64,000 nt of DNA from Gemmatimonas groenlandica (lineage in GTDB: Bacteria; Gemmatimonadota; Gemmatimonadetes; Gemmatimonadales; Gemmatimonadaceae). Below are positions 27,230 to 54,321 of the stretch, one piece after another (within the stretch, counting starts at the first letter, position 1; each line of letters opens with the position of its first letter). The translations under genes were made by a program, and so were the position numbers. The notes under the pieces were generated by a model. It worked only from the letters and a program-made list of their open reading frames with translations, was not told the origin of the DNA and did no database searches. The stretch spans positions 1,550,001 to 1,614,000 of the forward strand of contig NZ_CP053085.1 of assembly GCF_013004105.1 (NCBI RefSeq), written 5' to 3'.

Positions 27230-27361
27230 TGAATACTGATCCCTCACCTGCACCTGCCACTGCTTCCTGATAGACGAACGCGCCGGCGCGGGGTTCCACG
27301 ACGGCGCGTCCACTCCCAGTTCCTGCTAATCGCTTGTCGCACACACAGCACCTGCTGCAGC

Positions 27362-27447
27362 GGACAGGGTGAGATTCGAACTCACGATACCGTTGCCGGT
27401 ACGCCGGTTTTCGAGACCGGTGCCTTCAACCACTCAGCCACCTGTCC
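27362..27447 (-). tRNA. tRNA-Ser (anticodon CGA), insertion target
   Basis: An 86-nt class II tRNA on the minus strand, acceptor arms GGACAGG and CCTGTCC. The anticodon stem CCGGT/ACCGG holds CGA in the loop, and a long variable arm and GTTCGAATC T arm follow. Its 5' 43 nt (27405-27447) form the left att repeat of the integrated element. The gene is intact, but its 5' half and all upstream DNA now belong to the element, so its original promoter lies at the far right junction beyond 54,321. Confidence 0.93.
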
Positions 27448-27450
27448 AAC
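27405..27450. repeat. attL: 46-bp direct repeat in tRNA-Ser(CGA)
   Basis: This 46-bp block is identical to 54276-54321. The match breaks at both sides: C versus A to the left, T versus G to the right. It covers the tRNA from its 5' end through the anticodon loop plus three flanking bases. The usual reading is that integrase-mediated recombination at the tRNA produced the duplication. Confidence 0.95.
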
Positions 27451-28493: not shown

Positions 28494-30002
28494 CTAAGTC
28501 AGCAGCTTACGTAGCTCTTCGATTGCATATGGCTCGCGACGCGAATGGATCATCGCGTGGCAGTTAGCGCAGACAGGCCGAAGGTCGCGAACGGGATCGA
28601 GAATGTATTCGACGCCAGTTTCGGCGAAACGTTTGGCAAGCTCAGCCATGGTGACTAGGTGGTGCACGTGGATGTACCCGTGCCCCATTGCACCGTACGC
28701 AATCCCGAAGTCGAAGCCGCAGACCAAACAGGCGGCACCATAGTGGGCGATGCACTCTTTCCGAGCCGCTCGGCTTCTCTCGTATTTATTGACCGTGACC
28801 TGCCGACCGGCCCCGACCGGATACTGGCCAACAGAGTCATCCAGTTCCTCGGGAAGTTTGCTGTCATCGGCGGCGGACGGATCCAGCACGTCCCACACGA
28901 TTTGGATGGGTACCGAGTCCGTCACGGCGACTGGGACACCGACTCCGGCATACGTGAAGGGACCCCGATCTAAGGAGCGCCAGAAGATATGCGTGGTCAC
29001 TTCACGGCTTAGCATCGGCGCAATCTTGGCGTCGGTCCGTTTTGAGTTGGTCGTCCCGAACCAGCGGAATCGATCAGACCGGAGCCACTCATTCTGGTAG
29101 TCGTGCCCCGTGCGGCCCGCTGCATTGACCGCAGCGAAGATGAACATTTCGTCCCCTTCGCGGTGGTAGCCGGTCAGCCAGTCGCCGGAAGGTTTCGCTT
29201 CTATACCAAGGGCACGTGTAATGTCACTGCGGGTATAGGAACGATTTGGATGAAAGGAATGACGCTCCCTTGCGGCCCATAGAGTTTCAAGCGCAAGGTA
29301 TGCTTCCCCGTTGATACTGGTTCCCGACGACGGGATTGCCCAATTGATCTGGGAGAGTGCCCCTTCTGAGTTACGAGGATCGAGCGGCTCCGATTCGTCC
29401 GCAAGCACCGTATCAAAAAGCACCTCGACATAGTTCGCCGTCCCCCCCTTCGCGGCTAGCTCATCGTCCCAATGGGGTGCTTCGAAGGGAGAAGAGATCG
29501 TCCAGCCACTCGCGACGAATCCGCGTGGTTCGGCACCTTGCTTTAGAAGAAATGCGCGAGTGCCAATTGGAAGCGTACGGGTATTGCCGGAACTCCACCG
29601 CATGCGCACCGACTCGCCGCCATTAAACCTACGAACGACCTCGCTTCGGTCGGGCCATTCCCACCGATCAGGATTCCAAGTTAGGATGACCGCCCGTGTC
29701 TCGCCGGATGGGGAAACCTCCGACAGTCTGGTCCGGATGACAGTGAATCCGAGCGTATTCAGCGTCTTTTTGACGGTCTGCTCTCCCCCGCTGAAATCAC
29801 TAGCAGCGAGCGGTACGCCAGATACGCTCGATACTCCGTGTGCCGCTCCAACGATTGCCTTCGAGTCGTAGAATCGACCGTTGTAGAACAGGAAGAATTC
29901 TCGCGCTCGACCGAAGCCATACTTCGCAAGAAAGGCTTCACGGCCAAGGCTGTCAAACTCGGCAATCGCTCTGAGTACTGCTTCACGGTCATCGACCAGC
30001 AT
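28494..30002 (-). CDS. McrA-like HNH endonuclease with base-reader-like domains (type IV restriction candidate)
   Basis: A 502-residue multidomain protein. Residues about 1-95 resemble the ScoMcrA N-terminal head domain (FLLK-like FFLFYNGRFYDSKAIVGAAH). Residues about 100-215 open AVILTWNPDRWEW, as in EVE/PUA-like modified-base readers. A middle part (SYTRSDITRALG to HIFWRSLDRGPFTYAGVG) resembles the DUF3427 region of restriction-like helicases. The C-terminal HNH has CLVCGFDFG, YIHVHHLVTM and RPVCANCHAMIH, so zinc and catalytic residues are present. The likely job is cleavage of modified foreign DNA, inferred from domain order. It stands at the left end of the defence cargo. Confidence 0.8.
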   Translation of the reverse strand: MLVDDREAVLRAIAEFDSLGREAFLAKYGFGRAREFFLFYNGRFYDSKAIVGAAHGVSSVSGVPLAASDFSGGEQTVKKTLNTLGFTVIRTRLSEVSPSGETRAVILTWNPDRWEWPDRSEVVRRFNGGESVRMRWSSGNTRTLPIGTRAFLLKQGAEPRGFVASGWTISSPFEAPHWDDELAAKGGTANYVEVLFDTVLADESEPLDPRNSEGALSQINWAIPSSGTSINGEAYLALETLWAARERHSFHPNRSYTRSDITRALGIEAKPSGDWLTGYHREGDEMFIFAAVNAAGRTGHDYQNEWLRSDRFRWFGTTNSKRTDAKIAPMLSREVTTHIFWRSLDRGPFTYAGVGVPVAVTDSVPIQIVWDVLDPSAADDSKLPEELDDSVGQYPVGAGRQVTVNKYERSRAARKECIAHYGAACLVCGFDFGIAYGAMGHGYIHVHHLVTMAELAKRFAETGVEYILDPVRDLRPVCANCHAMIHSRREPYAIEELRKLLT

Positions 30003-31232: not shown

Positions 31233-31934
31233 ATGAGCTACGACATAGGTGCGATTGGAAAGGTGGAAGTTGTGGTTGATGGCCGCTGGACTTTGGAGGA
31301 TCTGGCAACGTTCTCGAGCCATCTTAGCGAAACGTACGGGTTCGTTCTCTCGCTGAGTCTCGACAGCGAAGTGAAGCAATTCGGAGCGGCATATTCACGG
31401 TATCCGTTTGCGGGCGGGTGGAGCTACTACGATTTCTTCCGCGATCTGAATTTAATCATTGGTCCTGAGCGTCAGATTTCTGTTCGCAAGATTCAGTACG
31501 CCTCTCTCGGCGTCATTGAACTTACTGGGGCCACGGAACCGCTGAGGCAGGCATTAACGATAGCATTTCAGCTGGGTGTTACCGGCGTTGCCGTTCAGCG
31601 CCTGAGCGCCATCGTGCGCTCGATAAGCGGCACTATTAGACAGGTCCGCATAGACTGGGCGGCAGGAACAGACGCGGCCACGAACGCCGAGCGCAATAAA
31701 GTACAGCTACTACGCGATGCTTCCGCAACTCTAGGAGCAGAACTTGGCTTCTCGGAGGAACAAAGGCAGACTCTCTCACGACTCACTAACGATAGTCCGC
31801 TCTTGGCGGTGAAGCTGCTTCTTGCGGTGGCTCGACGTGCACTGAAGGCTCAGCGGATGCATTCTACAGGAAAGGTGGTGAAGGTAGATGTTGTAGATCG
31901 GACGACGCCTGTTGAAACGGAGCCGCCAGTCTAA
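31233..31934 (+). CDS. Hypothetical protein
   Basis: A 233-residue soluble protein without a family I recognise. The N-terminal half has alternating beta-like stretches (GKVEVVVDGRWTLEDL, then SVRKIQYASLGVIELTG). From about residue 105 it turns helical (LRQALTIAFQLGVTG, SAIVRSISGTIRQV). The C-terminal part is Lys/Val-rich. The beta-then-helix plan with a hydrophobic helix resembles sensor-effector proteins on bacterial islands, but that is a loose impression. It stands alone on the plus strand, with 280 bases before it. Confidence 0.65.
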   Translation: MSYDIGAIGKVEVVVDGRWTLEDLATFSSHLSETYGFVLSLSLDSEVKQFGAAYSRYPFAGGWSYYDFFRDLNLIIGPERQISVRKIQYASLGVIELTGATEPLRQALTIAFQLGVTGVAVQRLSAIVRSISGTIRQVRIDWAAGTDAATNAERNKVQLLRDASATLGAELGFSEEQRQTLSRLTNDSPLLAVKLLLAVARRALKAQRMHSTGKVVKVDVVDRTTPVETEPPV

Positions 31935-32595: not shown

Positions 32596-34284
32596 TTGAA
32601 AGGCAATCTGCTGACAGTAGCTGGCTCTCCGACGCTCCCTCGATACTTCGTGACCTCACATTCGACAGTTGTCGTCCGTGTTGGCGACCTCCAGCCGACT
32701 TTTCAGGCGGAAGTGCTACGGGCTTATGCCGACGGACACTGGAATGCGTCCGTCCTTCAGAAGGCTGTGAGCCACGAGTTCAACTTCATGGGTCCGTGGG
32801 TAGAGGTGGCGGTCGTCGATAGTGCTACGGGTGTACCGGAAGACTCGCACCTCACGCTTCGATTCTCTCCGCCGACTGGCCGTGACTTAGCCGACGCTGA
32901 AAGGCGATTCGCCAAGGCAACACGACGGGCTGAGCGTGGGGATACTGCGGGCGCGGCCGACGATCTCAAGTCACTGACAACGACGTGGCCGGAGACGGCA
33001 AAGTATTGGCGGGCACTGGGACAGGCGCATCTCGTTCTTGAGGAGTGGGACGCATCGGAAGACGCCTTGCTCAAGAGCCTCGCCATCGACCCGCTCGACC
33101 CCGATTCGATGACCTTGCTCGGCAACCTATATGCTCGCCGAGGAAAGGCTGATCGCGCCATCGCTCTCTATCGACGATCCCTAGAACTGGATCGGAATGT
33201 GTACGCCATGGCAAACGTTGGCGCGATGCTGTCGAAGGCAGGTCAGCCTGACGAGGCGCTTCGCGTATTTCGGGAGGCTGTGAAGCTTGATCCCAACTAC
33301 GCGAACGCTTGGTATGGACTTGGCCTGACCCTCGCGAATCGTCGGGATGTCAACGTGCTGCCGGAAGCCATTGGCTCGTTGGATCAGGCACTCAGGGTGC
33401 TAAAAGAGCGGTCATCAGCGCCAGAGGTATGGGATGCTAGTCAGGGTCTACTCACCCAATTATCCAGCATAGCTGCTCACGACTGCGGCAATCGGGCTGA
33501 CTCCATGCTCTCCGCCGTGACAGACGAAGTCTCGGAGATCGGTGGACTCAGCGTCACGATTGAAGAAGCAACGCTACGTGGCATTCTCGCCAAGATTGAA
33601 CTTGGTTGGGTGCACGGGCGTGGGTATCACCGTGTGGTCGTAAGTCACGGAGCTGGCGTTGAGCGGGTTCATCAGATTCGACATGAACTCGAACATGCCC
33701 GACTCGCTGCGCTTGCCCGTCGTGCAGGAGTGAACAAGTGGTTCGCCAGTTCGATTGAGTCCTATGCGCTCGCGAACCGCGCAATTGCGAGCGACCTTGC
33801 ACGGCTCGGGAAGCTAGGAATGTCGTCGCTGGATCAAGTGGAGATGGGACGCCGTTGGATCGACGGCATTAACGGTCAGTTGTACAACTTCCCCGTTGAC
33901 CTGCTCATCGAATCAACGTTGATCAGAGAGCATCCGGAGTTCCGTGAGTTGTGGTTCTTCGCTGTAGAACGTCAGCTTCGCGTTGCACTGAAGATTGCTG
34001 AGGATCGTACCATTGCGAATTCAACCTCCCGCTTGATCTACAGGGCGAGCAACACGATGAATGGCGTGTTCGCCCTATGGCTTGAAGACCAGTATCCACG
34101 CCGAACAGACATCGCGTCGAGATTCAAGCGGATCGACACGTTCGCAACCGCGAAGAGACTGTACGAGTCTTGGCGTGAGGGCGCAGCGAGTTGGGCGGCT
34201 GGTGCCGAGCTTGGTTGGGTTGACGAATGGGCGGCGGTGCTGGGACTGAAGGGCTGGTACGTATGGACAGACGGGAATAACTAG
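32596..34284 (+). CDS. TPR protein with HExxH metallopeptidase-like domain
   Basis: A 562-residue protein with three regions. Residues 1-95 are beta-rich. Residues about 98-270 hold at least four TPRs (YWRALGQAHLVLEEWDASED, LLGNLYARRGKADRAIALY, ANAWYGLGLTLA). The C-terminal part has HELEH at 363-367 in VHQIRHELEHARLA, followed by a downstream Glu-rich helix (SSIESYALANRAIA). HExxH is the zinc site of gluzincin/metzincin peptidases, so proteolysis is plausible but unproved. Start TTG 32596 lacks a good ribosome site; GTG 32650 is the alternative. Ten bases separate it from the MazG-like gene, so it may head that operon. Confidence 0.75.
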   Translation: MKGNLLTVAGSPTLPRYFVTSHSTVVVRVGDLQPTFQAEVLRAYADGHWNASVLQKAVSHEFNFMGPWVEVAVVDSATGVPEDSHLTLRFSPPTGRDLADAERRFAKATRRAERGDTAGAADDLKSLTTTWPETAKYWRALGQAHLVLEEWDASEDALLKSLAIDPLDPDSMTLLGNLYARRGKADRAIALYRRSLELDRNVYAMANVGAMLSKAGQPDEALRVFREAVKLDPNYANAWYGLGLTLANRRDVNVLPEAIGSLDQALRVLKERSSAPEVWDASQGLLTQLSSIAAHDCGNRADSMLSAVTDEVSEIGGLSVTIEEATLRGILAKIELGWVHGRGYHRVVVSHGAGVERVHQIRHELEHARLAALARRAGVNKWFASSIESYALANRAIASDLARLGKLGMSSLDQVEMGRRWIDGINGQLYNFPVDLLIESTLIREHPEFRELWFFAVERQLRVALKIAEDRTIANSTSRLIYRASNTMNGVFALWLEDQYPRRTDIASRFKRIDTFATAKRLYESWREGAASWAAGAELGWVDEWAAVLGLKGWYVWTDGNN

Positions 34285-34293
34285 GAGCGCACA

Positions 34294-34671
34294 GTGTCAG
34301 AGGATTCGATAACGCAACTGATGTCCGAGATTCTGGCGTTTCGTGATGCGCGAGACTGGAAACAATTTCATACACCCAAGAATCTCGCGGCGGCGCTCTC
34401 CATAGAAGTGGGTGAGCTGCAAGAAACGCTTCTATGGAAAACCGACGAGCAGATAACTGAGTCGCTTCGTCAGACGGAGAAGTTCAATCGCATTCGAGAT
34501 GAAGTCGCGGATGTCTTGATCTATGCCTTGCTGTTTGCTGAAGCCACGGGTGTCGATCCAGTCACCGCGATCCGTTCAAAGCTCCAAGGAAATGCGGAGA
34601 AGTACCCCGTTGAGACATCGAAGGGGTCAGCATTGAAGTACTCGGAGCTGCCATCAACGCCAAAGTCCTAG
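34294..34671 (+). CDS. MazG-like nucleotide pyrophosphohydrolase
   Basis: A 125-residue protein of the MazG / RS21-C6 (dCTP pyrophosphatase-like) fold. The metal-binding pattern is visible: SIEVGELQETLLWK gives ExxE and EVADVLIYALLFAEATG gives the second acidic helix. Start GTG 34294. These enzymes hydrolyse (d)NTPs to NMPs and PPi, often removing non-canonical nucleotides. Five bases separate it from the HNH gene, which overlaps the DUF2075 gene, so the three form one operon. In a defence setting it could destroy modified phage dNTPs or a nucleotide signal; this is inference. Confidence 0.85.
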   Translation: MSEDSITQLMSEILAFRDARDWKQFHTPKNLAAALSIEVGELQETLLWKTDEQITESLRQTEKFNRIRDEVADVLIYALLFAEATGVDPVTAIRSKLQGNAEKYPVETSKGSALKYSELPSTPKS

Positions 34672-34676
34672 CTCCT

Positions 34677-35675
34677 ATGATTCAAACTATTGTATTGCCC
34701 GGACGTGAGAATTTCCCCAAGAGCGTCGATCCCGCGATTCCGCTAAGTCGGCTACAGCAAGCCGTTGACTCCAACATCTTCCGCGAGATACAGTCACGGT
34801 TTGGCTCTCGTCCCATTTCGACGTGGGGATTTACGCCGACGCTGGCCAACAAAACTCCGAAGAACTGGAACGCGCTAGAGGTCGGAGATCGCGCCCTCTT
34901 CACCGGCAACAACGAAGCGTTTGCAGTAGCTCGCATTTTCGACAAGGTGCATCACCCCGAGTACGCACGACAAATGTGGGGACCGACAGAGGACGGGCGA
35001 ATCTGGGAGTACATGATTCTCCTCGAAGACGTGCAACGATTGACGCCGCCGATCCCATATGTCGATTTGAACCCGCCGCTTGGCTACAGCAGCACCTTTG
35101 TGTACCCCGGTGCTCTGCTGCTCTCGCCGGAACGATCGTTGGTGTTAAGTGCCCTGTTAGAGGAGCGTGGCATCAAACCAACACCACAGACACCCAGTCC
35201 TCCCGCTCCAGCCCCCCTCCCATCACGGAAGGAGCTTGAAGGCCTCGCGAGTCTCGACAAGCCCTCGCTCGTTCAGCGGAGGGCCGAACAACAGTCGCTC
35301 CGACGCTTCTTACTAGAAGGCAACTCCACCGCCTTGTGCGCTCTCTGCGGCGAGAGCTTTAGTCAAGACCTGTTAATCGCCGCGCACATCAAACGGCGCA
35401 GTGACTGCTCGCATCAAGAAAGACTCGACTTCGACCACAATACGATGCTGCTCTGTCTCTTCGGTTGTGATGCCTTATTCGAGCGGCAGTACGTGATCGT
35501 CAACGCGGAGGGTACGGTGCATTTAGGACGCCGCGCCGAGACTGATGCCGTTCAACGAAGACAGGCTGAACTCACCGCCCGTCAAGTGCGAGGCTGGAAG
35601 CAACCGGCGCAGCCATATTTTGCAGCGCACGCCGAGCGCCTCCGACAGCCTGTCACTGACGAGAGTGAAGCGTGA
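34677..35675 (+). CDS. HNH endonuclease with PUA/EVE-like N-terminal domain
   Basis: A 332-residue protein. Residues about 40-150 (VGDRALFTGNNEAFAVARIF and WEYMILLEDVQRL) have the look of a PUA/EVE-type nucleic-acid reader. A Pro-rich linker (PTPQTPSPPAPAPLPS) follows. The C-terminal HNH has CALCGESFSQDLLIAAHIK, with R-S-D-C, then DHNTMLLC and FGCDALF, the His/Asn/Cys set of the LIAAHIKPRS family. The stop overlaps the DUF2075 start (ATGA at 35672). Probably a modification-sensing nuclease acting with its operon partners; specific substrate unknown. Confidence 0.8.
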   Translation: MIQTIVLPGRENFPKSVDPAIPLSRLQQAVDSNIFREIQSRFGSRPISTWGFTPTLANKTPKNWNALEVGDRALFTGNNEAFAVARIFDKVHHPEYARQMWGPTEDGRIWEYMILLEDVQRLTPPIPYVDLNPPLGYSSTFVYPGALLLSPERSLVLSALLEERGIKPTPQTPSPPAPAPLPSRKELEGLASLDKPSLVQRRAEQQSLRRFLLEGNSTALCALCGESFSQDLLIAAHIKRRSDCSHQERLDFDHNTMLLCLFGCDALFERQYVIVNAEGTVHLGRRAETDAVQRRQAELTARQVRGWKQPAQPYFAAHAERLRQPVTDESEA

Positions 35676-37546
35676 TCGTCTATTCCGCCGACAAGCGTCA
35701 ATTCCTGTCCGATATCGACGAACGTGAAATCGATGAGGTGATTCATCTCCGCTACAAAACGATCACGGGGCGCGGAGTTGGAACGAGCGAGCTTCGGTCA
35801 TGGCGTGAGTCTCTGACGCGAATGGCCAGCGTTCTGAGGGACGACAGTATTCCACCCAATGTGGGGATCGCAATTGAATTTCACATTCCGCAGAGTTCGA
35901 AGCGTATCGACGTAACCCTGACGGGACTCGACGATGAGAACGGGAAGAACGCGGTAATCGTCGAACTAAAGCAGTGGGAATCAGCCACGCGAACAGACCG
36001 CGACGCCATCGTAACTACGTTCGTGGGTGGCGGAAATCGCGAACTGGTCCATCCCTCGTATCAAGCGTGGTCGTATTCAACTTTGCTTGAAGGATTCAAC
36101 ACAGCGGTTCACGAGGGAGGCATCGTGCTTAGACCGTGTGCCTATCTTCACAATTACGTTCGCGATGGGCAGATAGACCACTCGTTCTACAATGGCTACA
36201 TCAGCAAGGCCCCCCTATTCCTGAAGGGTGAGGAGGAGAAGGCAAAGCTGCGCAGCTTTATCAGCACACACGTCAAGCGCGGCGATAGCTCCGGAATTCT
36301 CGAGGAGATTGAAGGCGCAAAGATCCGTCCATCGAAGGCGCTCGCCGATAGTCTAGCAGTCTTGATGAAGGGCAATCCCGAGTTTGTCCTCATCGACGAT
36401 CAGAAGACCGTATTCGAAGGTGTCGTGGCAGCTGCAAAATCCGCATCATCCGCCACGCCTCGGGTCGTTATCGTAGAGGGAGGTCCCGGTACTGGCAAAT
36501 CTGTGCTGGCCATCAACCTGCTTTCAGCGCTGACATCGGATGGACTCGTCTGCAAATATGTCTCACGGAATGCCGCGCCCCGTGCCGTATTTCAGTCCAA
36601 GCTCACTGGTAGTCTCACCAAAACGAAGTATGAGAGCCTGTTCGGCAGCTCTGGATCGTTCGTCGAATCAACCCCGAATGCCTTTGACCTGTTGATCGTC
36701 GATGAGGCGCATCGATTGAGTGAGAAGTCTGGCCTCTTAAACAACAAAGGCGAAAACCAGACCAAGGAACTCATCGCGGCAGGCAAGTGCACGGTCTTTT
36801 TTATCGATGAGGATCAACGGGTTACTCTGCGCGATGCTGGCTCAAAGGCTGCGATTCGCACGTTCGCCGAATCCCGTGGTGCCGTAGTCGAAGAGTACGG
36901 ATTGGCATCGCAGTTCCGGTGCAGCGGTTCGGATGGGTATCTCGCGTGGTTGGATCATGTGCTTGATATCCGCACCACGGCCAATACAACGCTCGATAGT
37001 GCCCAATACGACTTTCACGTTTTCGACTCCCCGTCAGAGCTTCACGACCTCATTGAGGCGATGAACACGGGCAATAAATCGCGGATGGTCGCCGGATATT
37101 GCTGGCCGTGGCTGGGTAAGAAGGATCCTGCCGTTCAGGATATCACTATCGGCAGCAACTACAAACGCCGATGGAACTTGGTCAAGGATGGCAGCCTCTG
37201 GATAGTCTCCCCTGACTCGGTAAACGAAGTTGGATGTGTACACACCTGCCAAGGGCTAGAACTCGATTACGTGGGCGTTATCATTGGCCCCGACCTGATC
37301 ATTCGAGATGGCCGCGTGCTGACCGTTCCATCCGCACGCGCATTTCAGGACAAGTCGCTCCACGGACTGAAAAAACTGGCCAAGACCGATTCGGCGAAGG
37401 CAGCGCAAGTCGCCGACCAGATCATCAAGAATACTTACCGCACACTGATGACTCGGGGAATGAAGGGCTGCTACATCTACTGTACGGATCCCGAAACGTC
37501 AGATTACTTCCGCAGTTGCCTTCGGCGAGAGTCGCCGGTTTCGTAG
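35672..37546 (+). CDS. DUF2075 NTPase with N-terminal PD-(D/E)xK-like nuclease domain
   Basis: A 624-residue protein. The N-terminal part has RIDVTLTG (D80) and AVIVELKQW (E98, K100), the D...ExK layout of PD-(D/E)xK nucleases. The central DUF2075 motor shows Walker A GGPGTGKS (270-277), Walker B/DEAH LLIVDEAHR (341-349), FFIDEDQRV and a C-terminal superfamily-1 motif VHTCQGLELDYVGVI. Such proteins combine helicase- or translocase-like ATPase and nuclease activities. It is the last gene of the MazG-HNH-DUF2075 operon and overlaps the HNH gene by four bases. Role in anti-phage defence is inferred from context. Confidence 0.85.
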   Translation: MIVYSADKRQFLSDIDEREIDEVIHLRYKTITGRGVGTSELRSWRESLTRMASVLRDDSIPPNVGIAIEFHIPQSSKRIDVTLTGLDDENGKNAVIVELKQWESATRTDRDAIVTTFVGGGNRELVHPSYQAWSYSTLLEGFNTAVHEGGIVLRPCAYLHNYVRDGQIDHSFYNGYISKAPLFLKGEEEKAKLRSFISTHVKRGDSSGILEEIEGAKIRPSKALADSLAVLMKGNPEFVLIDDQKTVFEGVVAAAKSASSATPRVVIVEGGPGTGKSVLAINLLSALTSDGLVCKYVSRNAAPRAVFQSKLTGSLTKTKYESLFGSSGSFVESTPNAFDLLIVDEAHRLSEKSGLLNNKGENQTKELIAAGKCTVFFIDEDQRVTLRDAGSKAAIRTFAESRGAVVEEYGLASQFRCSGSDGYLAWLDHVLDIRTTANTTLDSAQYDFHVFDSPSELHDLIEAMNTGNKSRMVAGYCWPWLGKKDPAVQDITIGSNYKRRWNLVKDGSLWIVSPDSVNEVGCVHTCQGLELDYVGVIIGPDLIIRDGRVLTVPSARAFQDKSLHGLKKLAKTDSAKAAQVADQIIKNTYRTLMTRGMKGCYIYCTDPETSDYFRSCLRRESPVS

Positions 37547-37610: not shown

Positions 37611-38474
37611 GTGACCTCAACACTTTCGACGAAAATGGAACTCTTTGTCGGCAAAGAATACAGACGTCGTGAAGTCCACGATGCGTTTGGTGGGCAGCGG
37701 CAGGGCGGGATAAGCACACCTGCCAACAGCACCGAGATTCTGATCTTTACGGGCGCGAGCGGAGAACAGTACGGATATCAGGACGGCCCGCAGCCCGACG
37801 GTCTCTATTGGTACACCGGCGAAGGACAAATCGGCGATATGGAGTTTATTCGAGGGAATGCAAGACTTCGTGATGCTATCGCAAATCGGGATCGCATCCT
37901 CGTGTTTGAGCAGACTCGAAAGTCTTATGTGCGATTTAAGGGCGGCACAGAGTGCCTCGGGTTTCATGAGAAACATGGCCCAGACCTCGAGGGAAATGGC
38001 CGACGCATCATCGTATTCCACCTTGGCCTCGGGTTAGACTCGCCGGCGTCAATAGCTCCCGACGTTGTTCCCGACCTGAGACAAGATCGCGTGAGTCGCG
38101 CTGCTGCGCCTGTCTCACTCGAGGAACTAAGACGCCGTGCGCTACAAGAAGCGCCGGCCAGCGCGACACCTGCTCAACGCATTCAGAACGTCTACACACG
38201 CAGCGCCTCGGTAAAGGCGTATGTACTCAAGCGGGCAGATGGCACGTGTGAGAGCTGCCTAATTCCTGCGCCATTTACAAGGATAGATGGAACGCCGTAC
38301 TTGGAGCCGCACCACATCCGACGGCTCGCCGATGGAGGACCGGACCATCCAAGCTCAGTCGCGGCGATCTGTCCCACGTGTCATCGGCGAGTTCATCATG
38401 GGGCAGACGGCAACGAGGTCAATAGGCGCCTCGCCGAACGCGTCGCGACTTTAGAGAAAAGGGCCGTCGATTAG
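37611..38474 (+). CDS. ScoMcrA-type HNH endonuclease with SRA-like domain
   Basis: A 287-residue protein. The N-terminal domain contains GKEYRRREVHDAFGGQRQGG, ISTPANSTEILIFTG and DGLYWYTGEGQIGDMEF, the pattern of the SRA-like domain of ScoMcrA-type enzymes that recognise modified or phosphorothioated DNA. The HNH is CESCLIPAPF, then EPHHIRRLADGGPDHPSS and ICPTCHRRVHHG, with complete ligands. Start is either GTG 37611 (near-leaderless) or ATG 37635, just before the conserved domain. It sits 64 bases after the DUF2075 gene on the same strand but appears to have its own promoter. A modification-dependent (type IV) nuclease is the natural interpretation. Confidence 0.85.
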   Translation: MTSTLSTKMELFVGKEYRRREVHDAFGGQRQGGISTPANSTEILIFTGASGEQYGYQDGPQPDGLYWYTGEGQIGDMEFIRGNARLRDAIANRDRILVFEQTRKSYVRFKGGTECLGFHEKHGPDLEGNGRRIIVFHLGLGLDSPASIAPDVVPDLRQDRVSRAAAPVSLEELRRRALQEAPASATPAQRIQNVYTRSASVKAYVLKRADGTCESCLIPAPFTRIDGTPYLEPHHIRRLADGGPDHPSSVAAICPTCHRRVHHGADGNEVNRRLAERVATLEKRAVD

Positions 38475-39077: not shown

Positions 39078-40961
39078 CTAGTGCTGTACTTTCGTCACCA
39101 CTCGCGCGAGGTCCGTCTTGAGCGACCGAGCTACGCGCTCGATAACGTGAAATCTTGCCATCATTACGCTCGTGAGTGCATAAGGAGAGAGCGCTTGCTG
39201 TAGTTCAACTCCGGTCCACGTGCGCCCGTTCGCGAGATTTCGGATGGTCATTACCGCTTCGACCAATTGAAGCCCCATCCACTCCTGCACGTAGTCAACG
39301 ATCAGACGTTCTATCTCTAGGTCAGCATTGGGATTGAACACCAAAGCGAAATGGGATAAAACGTCGCGATAACCGCGAAAGTCCGCGTTAGCCTTGATGG
39401 TAGAACTGTTGAGTGCGTCGCCCGCTATCTCTGCCGCGACGTCCTCCATCTCGCCATCTTCCCTTCCCTTCCCTAACGTAACCCAGAGAACTTCTGGCTC
39501 TCTGGGTTGTGCCAGTACGGGTACTGCTTCGTCTCCCCCGCTCTCCACAAGATCGGCGAGATAGTCGTCACTTGCTCGACCGCCTCGACTACCGGAGAGG
39601 CGATGAGATCGAGGTTCACTGAGTTCTCCGTCGCTGCCGGCGGCTCCTCCTCGAACACTTCCTGCAGCTAGTACCACGCCTGAGGCACTCTTCCGGTAGC
39701 GACTAGGGCGGAGAAAATCGCGAATCCTCTTTAGTCGCTCCAGAATGCGTTCTCTCAGCTTACCGTGCGGGTCACTGTTAGAACGCGCCATAATCTCGTC
39801 GATCTTGGCTCTGATCTCAGCCGGAAGTTGGGTCCGAAACTCGGCTCCCCACCGTTCCCACCAATTGGCTTCCTCTACGTCTTCCCCGTTGATCAGAACA
39901 CGCGAACGAGCCGTGTCTGCACGGAGGTCCAAACCGGTGGTCCCCCCGCGCGGTTCGATGTAGATAATCACATGCTCAGCTCCAAACAGCACTCCGAAGC
40001 CTGCAAGAATGCGGCGTGAACTTGGAGGCGTTCTAAGAACGTACACCTCGTCTTGGAAGACGATGCCAGCCTGACCGGTTCGGCTTCCGCGCGAACTCAT
40101 CTCCTTCGATGACTTCGCGGGGTCGTCGAAAACCCACCAGTGCGCGTCCGCATTTGAGAGATGCACCGTACCGTGCGCGCTTGAATACTCGTCGAACAGA
40201 TGCTTCGTGCCGCGGATAGTCTGGAGATTGAATGTTTTCTCCGAGGGCGATGGCTCGCCCTTCGGCCAGCGTTCAACATCCTTCGTCAGCACGCGAACTT
40301 GAAGCTTCAGGTTCGCCGGCAGGCGGAAATAGCGACTGGTTAAGTACGTCACCAGCCAATTCATTCCCCCTGTTTCGGGCGGCACACAGGTGTTGCCTTC
40401 GTCGCTGACACCGAGAAGCGTCACCTTGGTCCCAGAGTCCTCGATGCCTCTAGGTCTATTGACGTCCTTGATCCGCGGAGTCCAATGGGGACCATCTGCG
40501 AGATCAAATGAGTCTAGTCCGTACTGCCCGATGGAGTCATCTCGGTGCAGCTTGACCATCGTACCACGGCCGTCACGCCAAGACTGATAGACGAGACCGA
40601 GGCTATTCCGGAAAAGGGCCGTGATCTTAGCACCAACTCCAAAATTCTCTGAGATGCTTTGGGTTTGATTGGCGCCCTGAACTGCAAGGCTGTTCAAGTA
40701 CGACGACATTTGCTCAGGTGTCATACCATCGCCGTTATCGACGATGCAGAGCTTAAACGTGTCCGTGCGGGCGAGATGCTCCCAATCAACGTCCCACCTG
40801 ATAAGCCCCTCTCCCCCCTCGCCGGCTTTCTGACGCCGTACGACCGCTTCGATGGCGTTCTGGGTCAGCTCACGGATCTGCTGATTGGGCGGGGTGTCTG
40901 CCGCGAGGCGGTCCAGAAGGAACGCGATGTTCGCGACGGTCATTGGCCGAGTCTGTGACAC
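39078..40961 (-). CDS. GHKL (MORC/Hsp90-like) ATPase
   Basis: A 627-residue protein with a Bergerat ATP-binding fold. The N box is QIRELTQNAIEAVVRR, the DxGxG box is CIVDNGDGMTPEQM, and the GxGxK box is NFGVGAKITALF. A transducer-like domain follows to about residue 390. A helical segment and a Gly/Arg/Ser-rich linker (about 430-480) lead to a C-terminal helical domain. This resembles prokaryotic MORC-like ATPases, several of which occur in defence islands. Start GTG 40961, or ATG 40943 six codons later. The target is unknown. It shares orientation with the zinc-ribbon gene. Confidence 0.8.
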   Translation of the reverse strand: MSQTRPMTVANIAFLLDRLAADTPPNQQIRELTQNAIEAVVRRQKAGEGGEGLIRWDVDWEHLARTDTFKLCIVDNGDGMTPEQMSSYLNSLAVQGANQTQSISENFGVGAKITALFRNSLGLVYQSWRDGRGTMVKLHRDDSIGQYGLDSFDLADGPHWTPRIKDVNRPRGIEDSGTKVTLLGVSDEGNTCVPPETGGMNWLVTYLTSRYFRLPANLKLQVRVLTKDVERWPKGEPSPSEKTFNLQTIRGTKHLFDEYSSAHGTVHLSNADAHWWVFDDPAKSSKEMSSRGSRTGQAGIVFQDEVYVLRTPPSSRRILAGFGVLFGAEHVIIYIEPRGGTTGLDLRADTARSRVLINGEDVEEANWWERWGAEFRTQLPAEIRAKIDEIMARSNSDPHGKLRERILERLKRIRDFLRPSRYRKSASGVVLAAGSVRGGAAGSDGELSEPRSHRLSGSRGGRASDDYLADLVESGGDEAVPVLAQPREPEVLWVTLGKGREDGEMEDVAAEIAGDALNSSTIKANADFRGYRDVLSHFALVFNPNADLEIERLIVDYVQEWMGLQLVEAVMTIRNLANGRTWTGVELQQALSPYALTSVMMARFHVIERVARSLKTDLARVVTKVQH

Positions 40962-44897: not shown

Positions 44898-44989
44898 TCG
44901 TACGGCTACCAAATTGGTCTGAAGGTTTGGGGGCGCGTAACGGCACCCTGAGCCTTCGAATACACGTTACCACCGAAACGAATTCCCAC

Positions 44990-46036
44990 ATGCTATTGAT
45001 CATTGCTGGCGCGGGTGCCTCGCTTGACTCCGTGCCATTCACGCCTCCTCACACCGAGTCTGCGGGATATCAGCTACCCCTCGCCGATCAGCTCTTCGGG
45101 GTCAGTCAAGCCTTTTTAGATATTCAGACCAAGTATCCAGCTCTAAAGCAGATATCGACGCGACTGCACTTCCGCTCGAATGGCAAAACCGTTGAGGATG
45201 TACTCGCCGAAATGCAGGAAGAGGCGAAACACAATCCGGCCCGCCACCGGCAGTTGGTCGCGGTGAGATACTACCTCCAAGAACTCATTGATACCTGTGA
45301 GCAGCGATGGTACCGAGGGCACTCCCTGCCCACCAACATGATAGCGCTACTTGACCAAATTGAAAACGCTAGGCTCAAGCACGGCGGCGGCGCACACCCA
45401 TGCTTCATCACCTTCAACTATGACCGCATTATTGAGAACGCGCTCAGCAATCGTGGACATACGTTCAATAACATATCTGACTATACGGCAGCGAATCGTC
45501 CTGCTTTATTGAAGCTCCACGGTTCCGTTGACTGGGTTCGACCGGTAACGGGTTTGAAGCGACCGCCAAGGGATAATTCGCGAAATGAGGTAGCCGAGCG
45601 AATGGGCGAGGAGTTTCACGAAATCGTCCCAGAGCAGGTTGGCGAAATCAAAATCATACGAAGCATTAGCTCCACAACTTCTGAGGAAGGAATCCACTTG
45701 CCAGCGATTGCGATTCCGACGAAGGGCAAGTCTTTTGAATGCCCGGAATCGCATGTGGAGGAGCTACGGAAGATTCTACCTGAGGTTCGCTGTATCCTGA
45801 CAATTGGGTGGCGCGCACAGGAAGATCATTTTTTGGTCGAACTTCGCAGACTTGCTACGAAGCCGATTGTTGGCATCTGTGTTGGCGCTAATGGGCACGA
45901 TGCTGATCCAGTCACTAAGCAGATGATGCGGACCATGCCCCGAAGTGAGTTTAGGTCATTTGACGGGAGGGGCTTTTCGGATTTCGTGCGTAATCACGGT
46001 GTCGAGAGACTTTCGAATCTCGAGTGGCATCGTTGA
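44990..46036 (+). CDS. SIR2-like family protein (candidate NADase defence effector)
   Basis: A protein of about 348 residues with SIR2 (Rossmann, NAD-binding) features: LLIIAGAGASLDSVPF at the N terminus, CFITFNYDRIIENAL in the middle, LLKLHGSVDW, and a C-terminal IGWRAQEDHFLVELRR. Prokaryotic SIR2-like proteins of this kind are NAD-degrading effectors in several anti-phage systems. No adjacent sensor such as a short Argonaute, HerA ATPase or STAND protein is visible; upstream lie a small lipoprotein and a helical unknown. ATG 44990 puts the glycine-rich motif at the N terminus as usual; ATG 44927 is an alternative. Confidence 0.78.
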   Translation: MLLIIAGAGASLDSVPFTPPHTESAGYQLPLADQLFGVSQAFLDIQTKYPALKQISTRLHFRSNGKTVEDVLAEMQEEAKHNPARHRQLVAVRYYLQELIDTCEQRWYRGHSLPTNMIALLDQIENARLKHGGGAHPCFITFNYDRIIENALSNRGHTFNNISDYTAANRPALLKLHGSVDWVRPVTGLKRPPRDNSRNEVAERMGEEFHEIVPEQVGEIKIIRSISSTTSEEGIHLPAIAIPTKGKSFECPESHVEELRKILPEVRCILTIGWRAQEDHFLVELRRLATKPIVGICVGANGHDADPVTKQMMRTMPRSEFRSFDGRGFSDFVRNHGVERLSNLEWHR

Positions 46037-46994: not shown

Positions 46995-47282
46995 GAAACC
47001 TCCTTGGGGATGTAATCGCCAGACCGCTCATCAGCTGGCGTATTGATCGGTCATTGAGACATCGACCGTGAATCAAGTGTATCGATTCGCGGCGCACTTG
47101 TCAACCCCTAACTCCTTGTGGGACAACGGTTTACGTCCGTTTATACGATGAGCGTTAGAGTCGCGCATGGCCACGGGGATTTCATGACCTCTGCACGCGG
47201 GTCGAGGCTGCCCACCAACCGTTCATCGGACATCACTGCTATTCGGGTATCGCGATCATTCGGCTATAACGGCTATTCAGAT

Positions 47283-47356
47283 ATCACGGTTATTCGGATC
47301 TCACGGTTATCACGGTTATCACGGTTATTCGGTTATCACTGTTATCACGGTTAATC
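47283..47356. repeat. Degenerate 9-bp tandem repeats
   Basis: Units of ATCACGGTT and close variants (ATTCGGTT, ATCACTGTT) run head to tail, three in a row exact at the centre; more degenerate copies with TATTCGG extend left to about 47,225. A frame across them (47118-47354) has the repeat in its C terminus and is not counted as a gene. They may be a protein-binding array or simple slippage DNA. 46,995-47,282 shows no gene. Confidence 0.65.
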
Positions 47357-50784: not shown

Positions 50785-50973
50785 TCATATGACGAACGGA
50801 AATTGCCGATCCCGCCTGCTCGCCTTCTCATTGATCGTGATGCGGGTGCGCCAGTTAACAGTTCGCTCTGCTATGACCTCAGCAAGCGACACTATCGGAT
50901 ATGCGCCTCCATGCTGCTCGTTTTCTTGGGCAGCGATTAGCACCAGCTGTTGGCAGAGTTCAGGCAAACGCAC
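50785..50973 (-). CDS. Small ORF between polymerase-like and excisionase-like genes
   Basis: A 62-residue protein starting GTG 50973: RLPELCQQLVLIAAQENEQH, then PIVSLAEVIAERTVNWR. It overlaps the end of the polymerase-like gene by 14 bases and abuts the excisionase-like start, so all three form one leftward operon. That tight packing is the main reason to believe it. No family is recognised. Confidence 0.5.
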   Translation of the reverse strand: MRLPELCQQLVLIAAQENEQHGGAYPIVSLAEVIAERTVNWRTRITINEKASRRDRQFPFVI

Positions 50974-52330
50974 ATGATCGTCGTCGGCTAGCGATTATTT
51001 CATGCCTGCGTCGGTTGCGATCTAGCTGCTGCAATGAAGCATACATCCACCACTCCCCCACATAGTGAGAGATAGAGAAGGAGATATAATTCTTCATAAA
51101 CTCCTTCTTATGATGCATGGAGACAGAAATAGTGGGATACGACTTCACATGCTGAGCTGATTCTAGTCCGATATCGATCCCCCAAAGCGCCTGACCCAAT
51201 CCCATCATATGCCCATGCACCATATTGAGATCATCGCGAAGCACCATGACGCAATCGTGAATACGAAACATCACTATCCCGTATTCTTCGGCCCATTTCA
51301 TGAGAGCGTCGAAATATTGCGCTTCAATCTTGCCAAGGGTTTTCTCAATTACGCACGCATTCTTCGTCTTCAACGCTTTCGCCCGAATTCGACACCGATT
51401 GTGAAACTCTTCGAGCATGTCAACCAGCTTGCCTAGACCCATTTTACTTAGGAACTTGTAAAACTTCGCTTTGATCCCTTGTAGCGAATCCATCACCATT
51501 CGCTGGCGGAACTCCTTTAGATCTTGCTCCGTGTAGGCCATATCATGTCGTTCAAAAAATGACCTAATGGCATGTTTAAGATGCAGTAGATCATCGAGGG
51601 CACCCAATTTGCTTGTCAGTATGGCTGCGAACGTCAGAAACGCCGAACTGATATCAATGGTCGCTAACTGACGAGAGCCGAACCTGAGATTATTGCGTAC
51701 TGTTTTGGGTAGCTGCGTGATAGATGTATAGACGCGCCCGTTCTGTGCCCGAAGATCACTCACACGGTAATCACGCATATTGAAGTCGAGCGCCCGCAGT
51801 TTCTCATACTTCGACCATCTGGGATCAATCTGAATATGCAGATGCTTGGCACATTCATGTTCCCAAGTGAGCGCATTCGTGGTTTCCCCAAGGGCTTCAA
51901 CTCCCCTAGCACGTTTATCGATCTGCTCACGCGTATTCTCTGCTTTCTCCAAGAGCCGCCAGACGTTGTTAAACTTGTAGCAACTCCGGAAGCATATCTC
52001 GGGGCAGTTTATGAATGAATATCGATAAGCGTAGGACTGCGTATAGTTGCCGTTGACGTGTTGATAGTGCCGAGTCCGAACGAGCCGGAAGTGTTCGTTG
52101 AGGTATTCAACAGCGACGCCTGAATCGTCTATAGCTCGGAGCATTCGCGAGTCACACGGTGCGTTATCCGGAGCTACATCGTCATTACTGTAGATATTGC
52201 CCGTAGCCACTCCACACCGGATGATGAGTGCGGCAGTCGCAAGAATCTTGTGGCGTTGATCGGGGCGCAGTGTCAAATCAGCGTTGACCTGCTGCTTCCA
52301 TCCCTTTGGAATTGCATATCCTTTTTTCAT
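50960..52330 (-). CDS. Replication protein with family-A-like polymerase palm motifs
   Basis: A 456-residue protein. The centre reads GRVYTSITQLPKTVRNNLRF then QLATIDISSAFLTF, which resembles motif A in the polymerase-like replication proteins of phages and mobile elements (a 'LP..LR...G..L..iDi..s' pattern). Near the C terminus VMFRIHDCVMVL resembles motif C (HD-x). A Lys/Arg-rich helical region lies between. It is therefore a candidate DNA polymerase or primase-polymerase for this element; the family call is by eye and could be wrong. ATG 52330 was chosen because the longer start is not conserved-looking. Iterons lie about 300 bases upstream. Confidence 0.55.
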   Translation of the reverse strand: MKKGYAIPKGWKQQVNADLTLRPDQRHKILATAALIIRCGVATGNIYSNDDVAPDNAPCDSRMLRAIDDSGVAVEYLNEHFRLVRTRHYQHVNGNYTQSYAYRYSFINCPEICFRSCYKFNNVWRLLEKAENTREQIDKRARGVEALGETTNALTWEHECAKHLHIQIDPRWSKYEKLRALDFNMRDYRVSDLRAQNGRVYTSITQLPKTVRNNLRFGSRQLATIDISSAFLTFAAILTSKLGALDDLLHLKHAIRSFFERHDMAYTEQDLKEFRQRMVMDSLQGIKAKFYKFLSKMGLGKLVDMLEEFHNRCRIRAKALKTKNACVIEKTLGKIEAQYFDALMKWAEEYGIVMFRIHDCVMVLRDDLNMVHGHMMGLGQALWGIDIGLESAQHVKSYPTISVSMHHKKEFMKNYISFSISHYVGEWWMYASLQQLDRNRRRHEIIASRRRSCAFA

Positions 52331-52903
52331 AATCTCACTGAGCAATAGAACGAAACCGCGCCCCCTCGATTCTCCCTGTACTGGCAGTGAAAATCTCAAA
52401 GACGCGGTTTCAATTGTCGGGTAATCACATTATCGGATCACTCCAGTAAGTGACGACCCGACATCTCATATATATCACGCACCATCGCCAAACGATCACA
52501 CGTTGCGGGATCGACTGGTGAGATCTCTTCATTGCAGTATCGGCGATTTTGTACGGTCCTGTCAACTGCCGACCAGCCCAGCGCACACCATAATGACGGC
52601 GCTGTAGTCTCAGATGCTCGCGCTAAATATTCGGTTCTGCATATCGGCCTTATGCATATCCCGCTTATGCGTATCCCGCTTATGCATATCCCGCTTATGC
52701 GTATCCCGCTTATGCATATCCCGCTTATGCATATCCACAAGCGTGTGTTTAAACGGACGAGCTATGTCGCATAGTCGGCCTGATTAAACAGTGCCGATCT
52801 GTTTGGAGAAAACAGCAGGGTACAATCGTCGATCTACATAGGCGGTGAACTCTACGAACGGGCAATCAAACGCAGAACGACTGCGTTTATACCCTCCGTG
52901 ATT
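52331..52903. other. Candidate replication origin region
   Basis: There is no convincing gene in this 573-base gap. It holds the 15-bp iterons (52634-52738), AT-rich DNA on their left, and a 14-bp block at 52743-52756 that is the inverse of 41422-41435. An ORF at 52438-52740 is built partly from the iterons (ISGICISGIRISG repeats) and is rejected as a gene. Position upstream of the replication gene is classic for an iteron origin. Confidence 0.5.
52634..52738. repeat. Seven 15-bp iterons
   Basis: The unit CTTATGCATATCCCG at 52649-52663 is followed by five more, ending 52738. Two copies (52664 and 52694) carry GCGTATC instead of GCATATC, and the last ends CCAC. A degenerate copy (TTCTGCATATCGGC) precedes them at 52634. 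All have the same orientation and exact 15-bp period, short of 1.5 helix turns. Confidence 0.9.
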
Positions 52904-54160
52904 TCAAAGCGCTGCCGACTGTAAAAGCATTTTGCGGGCGTGCTGTAGGTCCTTCGTGAGTGCTGCTATAGACTCTTCCAGTCGGGCTACTTCACCATCC
53001 CAATCGGTAATATTGATTCCCTCGGTGATGAACCAAGCCCGCATCTTCTCGTTCGCGTCATCCAAGTCCCGTTGCCAGTCTCGCTTATGCGGCCCGTTCG
53101 TCTTGTAATTCACTGACGTGGACCGTGTGTGACCGGCGAATAGGATGCTTGCGCGTGAGGATATGCCAGCCCACTCCCACCACTTTTGAGTCGATGCTCG
53201 TAGGTCGTATATCTCGTAGTCCTCTTCACCGCACGCCAGTTTGAACGCCTTCGCAATTGTGCTTAGGGAGTAATACTTCTGGGTTCCTGCCTTTTCTGGT
53301 GTCACTCGGCCCATTTTGGCGGTACGCTTACAGAGGACATTCGGAGCTGGCCCGACGCCGTCCAAACGTGGAATAAACCGTTTTGCGCGAGGGTTCTTGC
53401 CTTTTAGGACTCGGATTGCATCGTCGTGCCATTCGTAAACAACGGGCGTATGCATATCGAGTTGGGCGTATTCCTTCGGTCGCATTGCAGTGCACGCCAA
53501 GTTCCACACGTGTTGAGAAAAATGGCCGTTACCCTGCTCTCGCATTTTGGCCATGATCGCCTGCACTTCTTTCGGGTCGAGTGTCCGCCGCTCTCGCTTG
53601 CGCTCAGCATCCATATTCGGTGCTGCCTGTAGCTTGCTGAGGAGCCATTCATCGCCCGCGCTTCTGGCGAAGCTTCGACACATCGTCCTAGCCCGACGAA
53701 ATACCAGATTCATTTGTCGCTTTTCGCATTCGATCAAATATCGATTTAGCACGTCGGGGAGCGCGTAGACGGTGGCCCCACTATCCGCCAGTTTCAGGAG
53801 CGCGACCACGGCCTGCCTGTACGACTCGACCGTGGTTGCTGCTAGGGGCTTTCTGTTGCGGTCTACTGGATGAGACTCTATCCAACGCTTGAGGGCGTCT
53901 GCTAGTGGCTCAGAACTACCGAGGGGACGTGAGTTTTTTGTCCCCGTAATCGCCTCATTAAAGGCCCGAACGAGACCCTGCTTGCCATGGTCACGAATCT
54001 GCCTCAGCGTCACGTCGTCTTCAGCTTTTATGCGCTCCGATACGAACGTATAGATCTGGTCGAGAACGTCCCTATCTGTGACACCGGTACGTACATCGAT
54101 GCGCCCGAAATCGATTCCCCGAACGATTCCAACACGAATACGAATGCGATCATCGATCAT
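52904..54160 (-). CDS. Tyrosine integrase of the element
   Basis: A 418-residue phage-type integrase. The catalytic domain has the first Arg in LACTAMRPKEYAQLDM, the box-II Arg in YDLRASTQKWWEWAGI, the His in LFAGHTRS and the nucleophile Tyr in TSVNYKT. The first His of the HxxR motif is Tyr here, a tolerated variant. A coiled-coil C-terminal tail (EVARLEESIAALTKDLQHAR) is unusual. I start at ATG 54160 (MIDDRIRIRVG); the longer frame overlaps the arm-type repeats. It lies 116 bases from attR, as for most tRNA-targeting integrases. Confidence 0.9.
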   Translation of the reverse strand: MIDDRIRIRVGIVRGIDFGRIDVRTGVTDRDVLDQIYTFVSERIKAEDDVTLRQIRDHGKQGLVRAFNEAITGTKNSRPLGSSEPLADALKRWIESHPVDRNRKPLAATTVESYRQAVVALLKLADSGATVYALPDVLNRYLIECEKRQMNLVFRRARTMCRSFARSAGDEWLLSKLQAAPNMDAERKRERRTLDPKEVQAIMAKMREQGNGHFSQHVWNLACTAMRPKEYAQLDMHTPVVYEWHDDAIRVLKGKNPRAKRFIPRLDGVGPAPNVLCKRTAKMGRVTPEKAGTQKYYSLSTIAKAFKLACGEEDYEIYDLRASTQKWWEWAGISSRASILFAGHTRSTSVNYKTNGPHKRDWQRDLDDANEKMRAWFITEGINITDWDGEVARLEESIAALTKDLQHARKMLLQSAAL

Positions 54161-54174
54161 CGAAAATCTCGCAC

Positions 54175-54198
54175 AATGGGGACAACATGGGGACAAAT
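54175..54198. repeat. Right arm-type repeat (paired TGGGGACA)
   Basis: AATGGGGACA, ACA, then TGGGGACAAAT: the same arrangement and orientation as 27565-27588. It lies 78 bp inside attR and just upstream of the integrase start, so integrase binding here could also repress its own gene. Confidence 0.6.
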
Positions 54199-54275: not shown

Positions 54276-54321
54276 CGGTTTTCGAGACCGGTGCCTTCAA
54301 CCACTCAGCCACCTGTCCAAC
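54276..54321. repeat. attR: 46-bp direct repeat
   Basis: Identical to attL at 27405-27450. It keeps the original 5' half of tRNA-Ser(CGA) and three flanking bases; the 3' half is absent, so this is only a tRNA fragment. The chromosomal DNA to its right should hold the native tRNA promoter; no clear -35/-10 pair is seen in 54322-54400. The 212 bases from 54322 to 54533 contain no gene. Confidence 0.95.

What the first reader, a model, noticed from the sequence alone, without database searches (positions are those of the whole stretch)
34294..37546. MazG - PUA/HNH nuclease - nuclease-DUF2075 operon: candidate anti-phage system
Three genes lie in one tight operon (5-base gap, then a 4-base overlap). 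The first is a MazG-fold nucleotide pyrophosphohydrolase, the second an HNH nuclease with a PUA/EVE-like reader domain, the third a DUF2075 motor with an N-terminal D...ExK nuclease-like domain. Seen directly: the packing and the motifs. Known: each family occurs in defence or DNA-modification settings. Inference: the three act together, for example destroying modified nucleotides or DNA of phages. I do not know this exact trio as a named system. The TPR/HExxH gene ten bases upstream could be a fourth component.
Basis: partly seen in the sequence, partly recalled or inferred. Interest (0 to 1): 0.85.

Follow-up and report, generated by a model that had tools for sequence, protein, structure and literature searches.

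The report
Mobile dNTPase–nuclease-helicase defence operon (candidate)
A bacterial mobile island carries a gene set, also found as a recurring unit in bacteria, archaea, plasmids and one phage record, that pairs an enzyme predicted to destroy DNA building blocks with a DNA-cutting motor, plus optional helper genes; it is probably an undescribed anti-virus defence, but no activity has been tested.

Summary
Three genes abut (5-base gap, 4-base overlap), and a TPR/HExxH gene ends 9 bases upstream. The conserved unit is a pair: a MazG of the dCTP-pyrophosphatase (DCTPP1) type, and a 624-aa nuclease-helicase (HEL: PD-(D/E)XK domain plus SLFN-g3/DUF2075 helicase). MazG lies directly upstream of HEL in 64 of 80 genome loci from many phyla. 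In plasmids the two families share 12 records where 0.016 are expected. The middle gene and the TPR gene are optional parts that recur. MazG–HNH–HEL occurs in the same order elsewhere, and every TPR-zincin homologue found sits beside a MazG. The middle protein resembles VcaM4I, an EVE-HNH enzyme that cuts 5mC/5hmC DNA (low-confidence model). All active-site motifs are conserved. The operon sits in a 26.9-kb island integrated in tRNA-Ser(CGA), with 46-bp direct repeats and an empty site in a relative. Best reading: a mobile anti-phage module that limits (modified) dCTP and degrades phage DNA. Defence, substrates and joint action are inferred, not shown. I found no paper or PADLOC model describing the pair in the libraries searched.

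The parts
27405..27450 (.). left 46-bp direct repeat (putative att site), inside tRNA-Ser(CGA) 27360-27447
   Evidence: identical copy at 54276-54321
54276..54321 (.). right 46-bp direct repeat of the tRNA-Ser 5' half; island = 27405-54321
   Evidence: in same-genus locus L183 tRNA-Ser(CGA) lies next to tadA without the island
32596..34284 (+). TPR protein with C-terminal zincin-like domain (HExxH at 363-367, E439); optional partner
   Evidence: HExxH plus GxxxQ....P.D...E invariant in 8 homologues; MazG adjacent in every homologue found
34294..34671 (+). MazG, DCTPP1-like all-alpha NTP pyrophosphohydrolase; core
   Evidence: PF12643 6e-16; DCTPP1 / RS21-C6 1.5e-21; E38, E41, E70, D73 conserved
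34677..35675 (+). EVE/YTH-like reader (about 1-170) plus HNH nuclease (about 193-294), VcaM4I-like; optional partner
   Evidence: HNH_2; HNH part 6yex 3e-3; reader model McrB-N/m5C-DNA 1.4e-3 and 6yex Z 7.1
35672..37546 (+). HEL: N-terminal PD-(D/E)XK nuclease (about 1-210) plus SLFN-g3/DUF2075 helicase (264-606); core
   Evidence: PF09848 5e-102; motif residues 84/84; nuclease model pLDDT 86.5 with PD-(D/E)XK neighbours
37611..38474 (+). second HNH protein (type IV restriction-like), possible fifth gene of the operon
   Evidence: PF01844 9e-8; PADLOC mREase_IV 2e-21; 64-base gap

Best explanation
A horizontally mobile anti-phage module. Its core is a two-gene unit: a DCTPP1-like MazG that hydrolyses dCTP and 5-substituted dCTPs to monophosphates, and an ATP-driven nuclease-helicase (HEL) that translocates on and cuts DNA. 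During infection MazG lowers the supply of (modified) pyrimidine dNTPs for phage replication, and HEL attacks stalled or broken phage DNA. In this window two optional genes are added: an EVE-HNH endonuclease that cuts DNA already carrying modified cytosine, and a TPR-metalloprotease that I take to be a sensor or activator. Shown: gene order, motifs, family membership, conserved linkage, mobile island. Inferred: that it defends, the substrates in vivo, the order of events and the protease's role.
For: MazG directly upstream of HEL in 64/80 genome loci spanning Proteobacteria, Bacteroidota, Desulfobacterota, Patescibacteria and others, and in archaeal and Bacillota plasmids. Independent plasmid searches: 12 shared records, 0.016 expected, p 4e-33. 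HEL nuclease and helicase residues invariant 84/84. MazG nearest to DCTPP1, which prefers dCTP and its modified derivatives (PMC7162842, abstract). The middle gene resembles VcaM4I in both halves; VcaM4I binds 5mC/5hmC, and an EVE-HNH relative, TspA15I, restricts T4gt (PMC7897488). MazG overlaps other modification-reader nucleases: MrcB_N-HNH in L020, EVE-NOV_C in L140. Flanking genes include type I, II and IV restriction enzymes; random stretches show only generic hits. Patchy (10/298 genomes, none of the 15 same-genus ones listed); tRNA island with att repeats.
Against: No phage assay or enzymology exists here. Linkage to restriction genes is guilt by association. MazG is also a common stand-alone housekeeping gene (49/143 genomes of one class; stand-alone plasmid copies). 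13 of 80 HEL loci have no full MazG beside HEL, so MazG adjacency is not obligatory. The HNH model is poor (mean pLDDT 50). The TPR-zincin domain has no PDB sequence match beyond its TPRs.
Confidence: 0.5

Rival explanations
1. Self-protection: MazG is the immunity partner. It clears modified dCTPs (from salvage of digested phage DNA or chemical damage) so that the host does not build them into its own genome and get cut by the module's nucleases.
For: DCTPP1 is a sanitising enzyme for modified dCTPs (PMC7162842). MazG pairs with modification-reader nucleases in several forms. 12 of 13 genomes whose HEL lacks an adjacent full MazG encode one elsewhere, against 48/142 in a baseline class.
Against: The baseline is one class and genome size is not controlled. 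Most MazG-HEL pairs have no recognised reader nuclease. Whether HEL prefers modified DNA is unknown.
Confidence: 0.2
2. Regulation: MazG is a nucleotide-sensing subunit that binds HEL and gates its nuclease when phage replication changes dNTP levels, comparable to NTP gating of Gabija (from memory).
For: Tight 1:1 gene pairing with short gaps or overlaps. Distances in MazG and HEL correlate (Mantel r 0.31, 0/2000 permutations). TPR and protease partners suggest a regulated complex.
Against: MazG catalytic residues are nearly invariant, so catalysis rather than pure sensing is conserved. No complex was tested.
Confidence: 0.15
3. Housekeeping: a nucleotide-sanitation and DNA-repair operon for damaged bases, not a defence system.
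For: MazG and related dNTP pyrophosphohydrolases are house-cleaning enzymes; a MutT gene lies upstream in L020 and a second dNTP pyrophosphohydrolase in L184.
Against: Patchy distribution, plasmids and a tRNA-integrated island with restriction-like and SIR2-like genes. Recurrent fusion or pairing with restriction-type nucleases.
Confidence: 0.13

Closest known systems
VcaM4I / EVE-HNH modification-dependent restriction endonucleases (type IV)
   Same: EVE/YTH-like reader followed by HNH nuclease in a protein of similar size; both halves match entry 6yex
   Different: Encoded in an operon with MazG and a nuclease-helicase; sequence similarity is confined to the HNH part and weak; reader pocket and specificity untested
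DCTPP1 / RS21-C6 (MazG-type dCTP pyrophosphatase)
   Same: 1.5e-21 match over residues 15-121 including the EVGEL....ELSDVLIY motifs
   Different: Here a partner of a defence-type nuclease-helicase; activity untested. DefensePredictor (PMC13092281) lists MazG among predicted, unvalidated defence domains
Nhi and AbiO (single-protein nuclease-helicase immunity)
   Same: Nuclease plus SF1-type helicase; PADLOC hits to the helicase half at 3e-9 and 1e-9
   Different: Different nuclease half; MazG partner; only part of the profile matches
Group III Schlafens (e.g. SLFN11)
   Same: Same helicase family PF09848
   Different: No Schlafen AlbA core; a PD-(D/E)XK domain stands in its place
PDC-S41 (PADLOC single-gene candidate)
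   Same: 7e-14 match to two stretches of HEL
   Different: Partial match; no MazG in that definition

Membership tests
DCTPP1-like MazG pyrophosphohydrolase | MazG fold with EExxE and ExxD metal-binding motifs | tested here: met
   PF12643 6e-16; DCTPP1 1.5e-21; E38, E41, E70, D73 in at least 69 of 72 homologues
DCTPP1-like MazG pyrophosphohydrolase | hydrolysis of dCTP / 5-substituted dCTP | not testable with these tools
   needs enzymology
EVE-HNH modification-dependent endonuclease | HNH catalytic domain | tested here: met
   PF13391 just above cut-off; homologue L104 4e-13
EVE-HNH modification-dependent endonuclease | N-terminal EVE/PUA-superfamily reader | tested here: inconclusive
   fold hits McrB-N, VcaM4I, YTH, ASCH (Z 8.0-5), but mean pLDDT 50; no Pfam EVE hit in the window protein
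EVE-HNH modification-dependent endonuclease | cleavage of 5mC/5hmC DNA | not testable with these tools
   needs nuclease assays
Schlafen | SLFN core (AlbA) nuclease domain | tested here: not met
   no SLFN_AlbA hit; N-terminal PD-(D/E)XK motif and model instead
SLFN-g3/DUF2075 helicase (PF09848) | full-length helicase domain with Walker motifs | tested here: met
   342 bits, 2-354/354; K276, D344-E345 84/84
PD-(D/E)XK nuclease | D...ExK active site on alpha/beta core | tested here: met
   E69, D80, E98, K100, Q131 84/84; model neighbours VC1899, Cdn1, Can2, EndoMS, Kpn2I (Z up to 7.6; Foldseek best E 0.04)
Nhi/AbiO | full-length match to the system's protein | tested here: inconclusive
   only the helicase half matches at about 1e-9
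zincin metallopeptidase (TPR gene) | HExxH plus third ligand | tested here: met
   motif and E439 invariant in 8 homologues; fold not modelled
Any PADLOC 2.0.0 system | all genes match one system definition | tested here: not met
   MazG, EVE-HNH and TPR genes have no PADLOC hit

The most novel reading that the evidence does not exclude
An undescribed, cross-domain prokaryotic immune module in which a dNTP pyrophosphohydrolase and a Schlafen-type nuclease-helicase attack precursor and polymer of phage DNA together, with a swappable front end (EVE-HNH reader, MrcB_N-HNH, TPR-metalloprotease). It would parallel, by convergence, the mammalian pairing of a dNTPase (SAMHD1) with SLFN11.
Probability: 0.35. 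Interest if true: 0.8.

Novelty: new variant of a known kind. Interest (0 to 1): 0.62.

Why it matters
It gives a compact, widely spread operon in which nucleotide hydrolysis and DNA destruction appear coupled. MazG has been predicted as a defence domain but not validated (PMC13092281). The pair is small (about 2.3 kb), is found with intact reading frames in cultured genera (for example Variovorax, Achromobacter, Rufibacter) and is directly testable in E. coli.

Tried and rejected
Trio as the obligatory unit: rejected, because the middle HNH gene has no homologue detected in the 80 genome loci. A direct viral-contig scan with the window HNH gave no relatives, as did one with the TPR-zincin; A2 was too diverged for a scan. 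TPR-only matches in the class were generic TPR proteins. HEL N-terminus by Foldseek alone was weak (best E 0.04); VIA-align rows are all under Z 8, so I rely on motif plus fold. PDB sequence search gave no zincin match. Literature: no paper with DUF2075+MazG, none on point for MazG+Schlafen, none with DUF2075+defense+phage; Burroughs 2015, cited by DefensePredictor for predicted nucleotide-centred defence domains, is not held, so prior mention of this pair cannot be excluded. PADLOC enrichment could be compared only by family lists, not by a per-gene count.

Full report
OBSERVATION. A further HNH gene follows on the same strand after 64 bases (37611-38474). Pfam: MazG-like 6e-16, HNH_2 2e-4 (marginal), SLFN-g3_helicase 5e-102, TPR 3e-17. 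No sigma-70-like promoter or terminator stands out from shuffles inside the cluster.

WHAT IS CONSERVED. I examined the 80 best loci. MazG ends within 100 bases of HEL's start in 64 of them, directly after HEL in one (L090), and about 0.7 kb upstream in two. The remaining 13 have no full MazG beside HEL (L099 has only 0.3 kb of sequence upstream; L083 keeps a 77-codon MazG-like fragment). These loci were chosen by HEL alone, so the MazG count is not circular. An independent check: MazG and HEL tblastn searches of 72,556 plasmids gave 27 and 42 records, of which 12 are shared (0.016 expected, p 4e-33), most of them adjacent and all within about 10 kb. The pair also extends to lactobacilli, where HEL's helicase half is only about 27% identical.

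OPTIONAL PARTS. (a) The middle HNH gene. MazG-HNH-HEL in the same order occurs in viral contig L104 (4545-4916, 4920-5915, 5881-7737). HNH-MazG-HEL occurs in Nocardiopsis eucommiae L117, and MazG-HNH with HEL nearby or divergent in L118, L106 and L121; L120 has MazG-HNH only. In a Gemmatimonadota-class relative (L140) a MazG 60% identical to the window's overlaps a gene with the same N-terminal domain fused to EVE and NOV_C domains; the phylum name is my inference from GC content and kinship, since genome names are withheld. In Priestia an MrcB_N-HNH gene overlaps MazG. (b) The TPR gene. Homologues stand upstream of MazG in L035, L072, L084, L091, L096, L098 and L102 (found through HEL). In searches made with the TPR gene itself they stand next to MazG in Marivirga (L017), Hymenobacter (L122), a Microcystis phage record (L123, TPR-MazG-HEL) and two genomes of the class of Pontibacter (L138, L139). 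In L138 TPR-MazG is followed by a type III restriction enzyme and methylase; in L139 by a GIY-YIG plus SLFN helicase plus S24-peptidase protein. Genomes carrying it have it at a single place (in L084's genome the gene is broken into two pieces at that place).

ACTIVE SITES. HEL: E69, D80, E98, K100, Q131, Y135 and Walker K276, D344, E345 are identical in 84 of 84 sequences; only one of 84 loci (L023) is disrupted. A model of residues 1-261 from 30 homologues has pLDDT 86.5. Its best structural neighbours are PD-(D/E)XK nucleases (VC1899, Cdn1, Can2, Kpn2I, EndoMS, Card1; Z 7.6-5.4). Those Z values alone would not prove the fold; with the invariant D...ExK they make it near certain. MazG: catalytic acids conserved in at least 69 of 72; closest solved relatives are DCTPP1/RS21-C6 (1.5e-21). 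Human DCTPP1 has high affinity for dCTP and modified dCTPs (abstract of PMC7162842). Middle gene: the HNH half matches VcaM4I (6yex, 3e-3). VcaM4I is an EVE-HNH enzyme with preference for 5mC/5hmC DNA (PMC7897488). TPR gene: HExxH plus GxxxQ....P.D...E invariant in eight diverged homologues.

SETTING. The GC dip (mostly 52-57% against 63-68%) is bounded by 46-bp perfect direct repeats, 27405-27450 inside tRNA-Ser(CGA) and 54276-54321 next to tadA. In same-genus locus L183 tRNA-Ser(CGA) and tadA are neighbours. So the operon is cargo of a 26.9-kb integrated island, and HEL is absent from the 15 same-genus genomes listed. The island also holds restriction-like HNH genes (28494, 37611), a PD-T4-10_B-like gene (31233), a GHKL ATPase, a SIR2-like gene and IS21 genes. 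Next to HEL elsewhere, PADLOC finds type I, II and IV restriction enzymes and candidate systems; a control of 88 genes from 15 random stretches of HEL-bearing genomes (the window's own among them) gives mainly generic UvrD, subtilase or MotB-type hits. This comparison is of family lists, not a formal count.

MECHANISM. Two enzymes centred on (modified) cytosine nucleotides and two DNA-acting nucleases in one operon make a defence role most likely. MazG would cut the supply of dCTP-type precursors, EVE-HNH would cut DNA that already bears modified cytosine, and HEL would degrade stalled or broken phage DNA. The main open point is MazG's direction: weapon, self-protection or regulator. One hint for a requirement is that 12 of 13 genomes whose HEL lacks an adjacent full MazG have a MazG elsewhere, against 48 of 142 baseline genomes (p 5e-5), but genome size and clade are not controlled.

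NOVELTY. No PADLOC 2.0.0 profile hits MazG, the EVE-HNH or the TPR gene, and HEL matches only in part. No relevant paper in the held library joins DUF2075 or Schlafen with MazG. DefensePredictor names MazG as a predicted, unvalidated defence domain. Every domain type is known; the module is not described as far as I could see. Hence 'new variant of a known kind'.

Noticed in passing
27405-27450 and 54276-54321: 46-bp perfect direct repeats of tRNA-Ser(CGA) bound a 26.9-kb island; a same-genus relative (L183) has the empty tRNA-tadA site. No recognisable tyrosine integrase was found: ORFs 50960-52399 and 52904-54196 near the right end have no Pfam match.
   Followed up: partly
28494-30002 (-): 502-aa protein with an HNH-type C-terminus, PADLOC mREase_IV match at the N-terminus and partial DUF3427: another candidate modification-dependent nuclease in the island.
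   Followed up: no
31233-31934 (+): 233-aa protein similar to PD-T4-10_B (4e-15); a PD-T4-10_A partner was not looked for.
   Followed up: no
39078-40961 (-) and 44927-46036 (+): GHKL/HATPase protein and a SIR2-like protein, both of types seen in defence loci.
   Followed up: no
47231-47351 and 52632-52736: Short tandem arrays with 17-nt (later mixed 17/9) and 15-nt spacing inside the island.
   Followed up: no
L123 (PP438423.1, 3843-8077 of the record): A deposited Microcystis phage genome carries the complete TPR-zincin / MazG / nuclease-helicase set.
   Followed up: partly
L138 and L139: TPR-zincin plus MazG also precede a type III restriction-modification pair and a GIY-YIG / SLFN-helicase / S24-peptidase protein, so the front end swaps effectors.
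   Followed up: partly
L022, L047, L077: A second, distinct HNH_2 nuclease family with an N-terminus that reads like an EVE domain lies downstream of HEL (two of these loci lack an adjacent MazG).
   Followed up: partly
L047 4529-5905: Prokaryotic Schlafen (AlbA_2) plus ATPase/HTH gene directly upstream of HEL.
   Followed up: no
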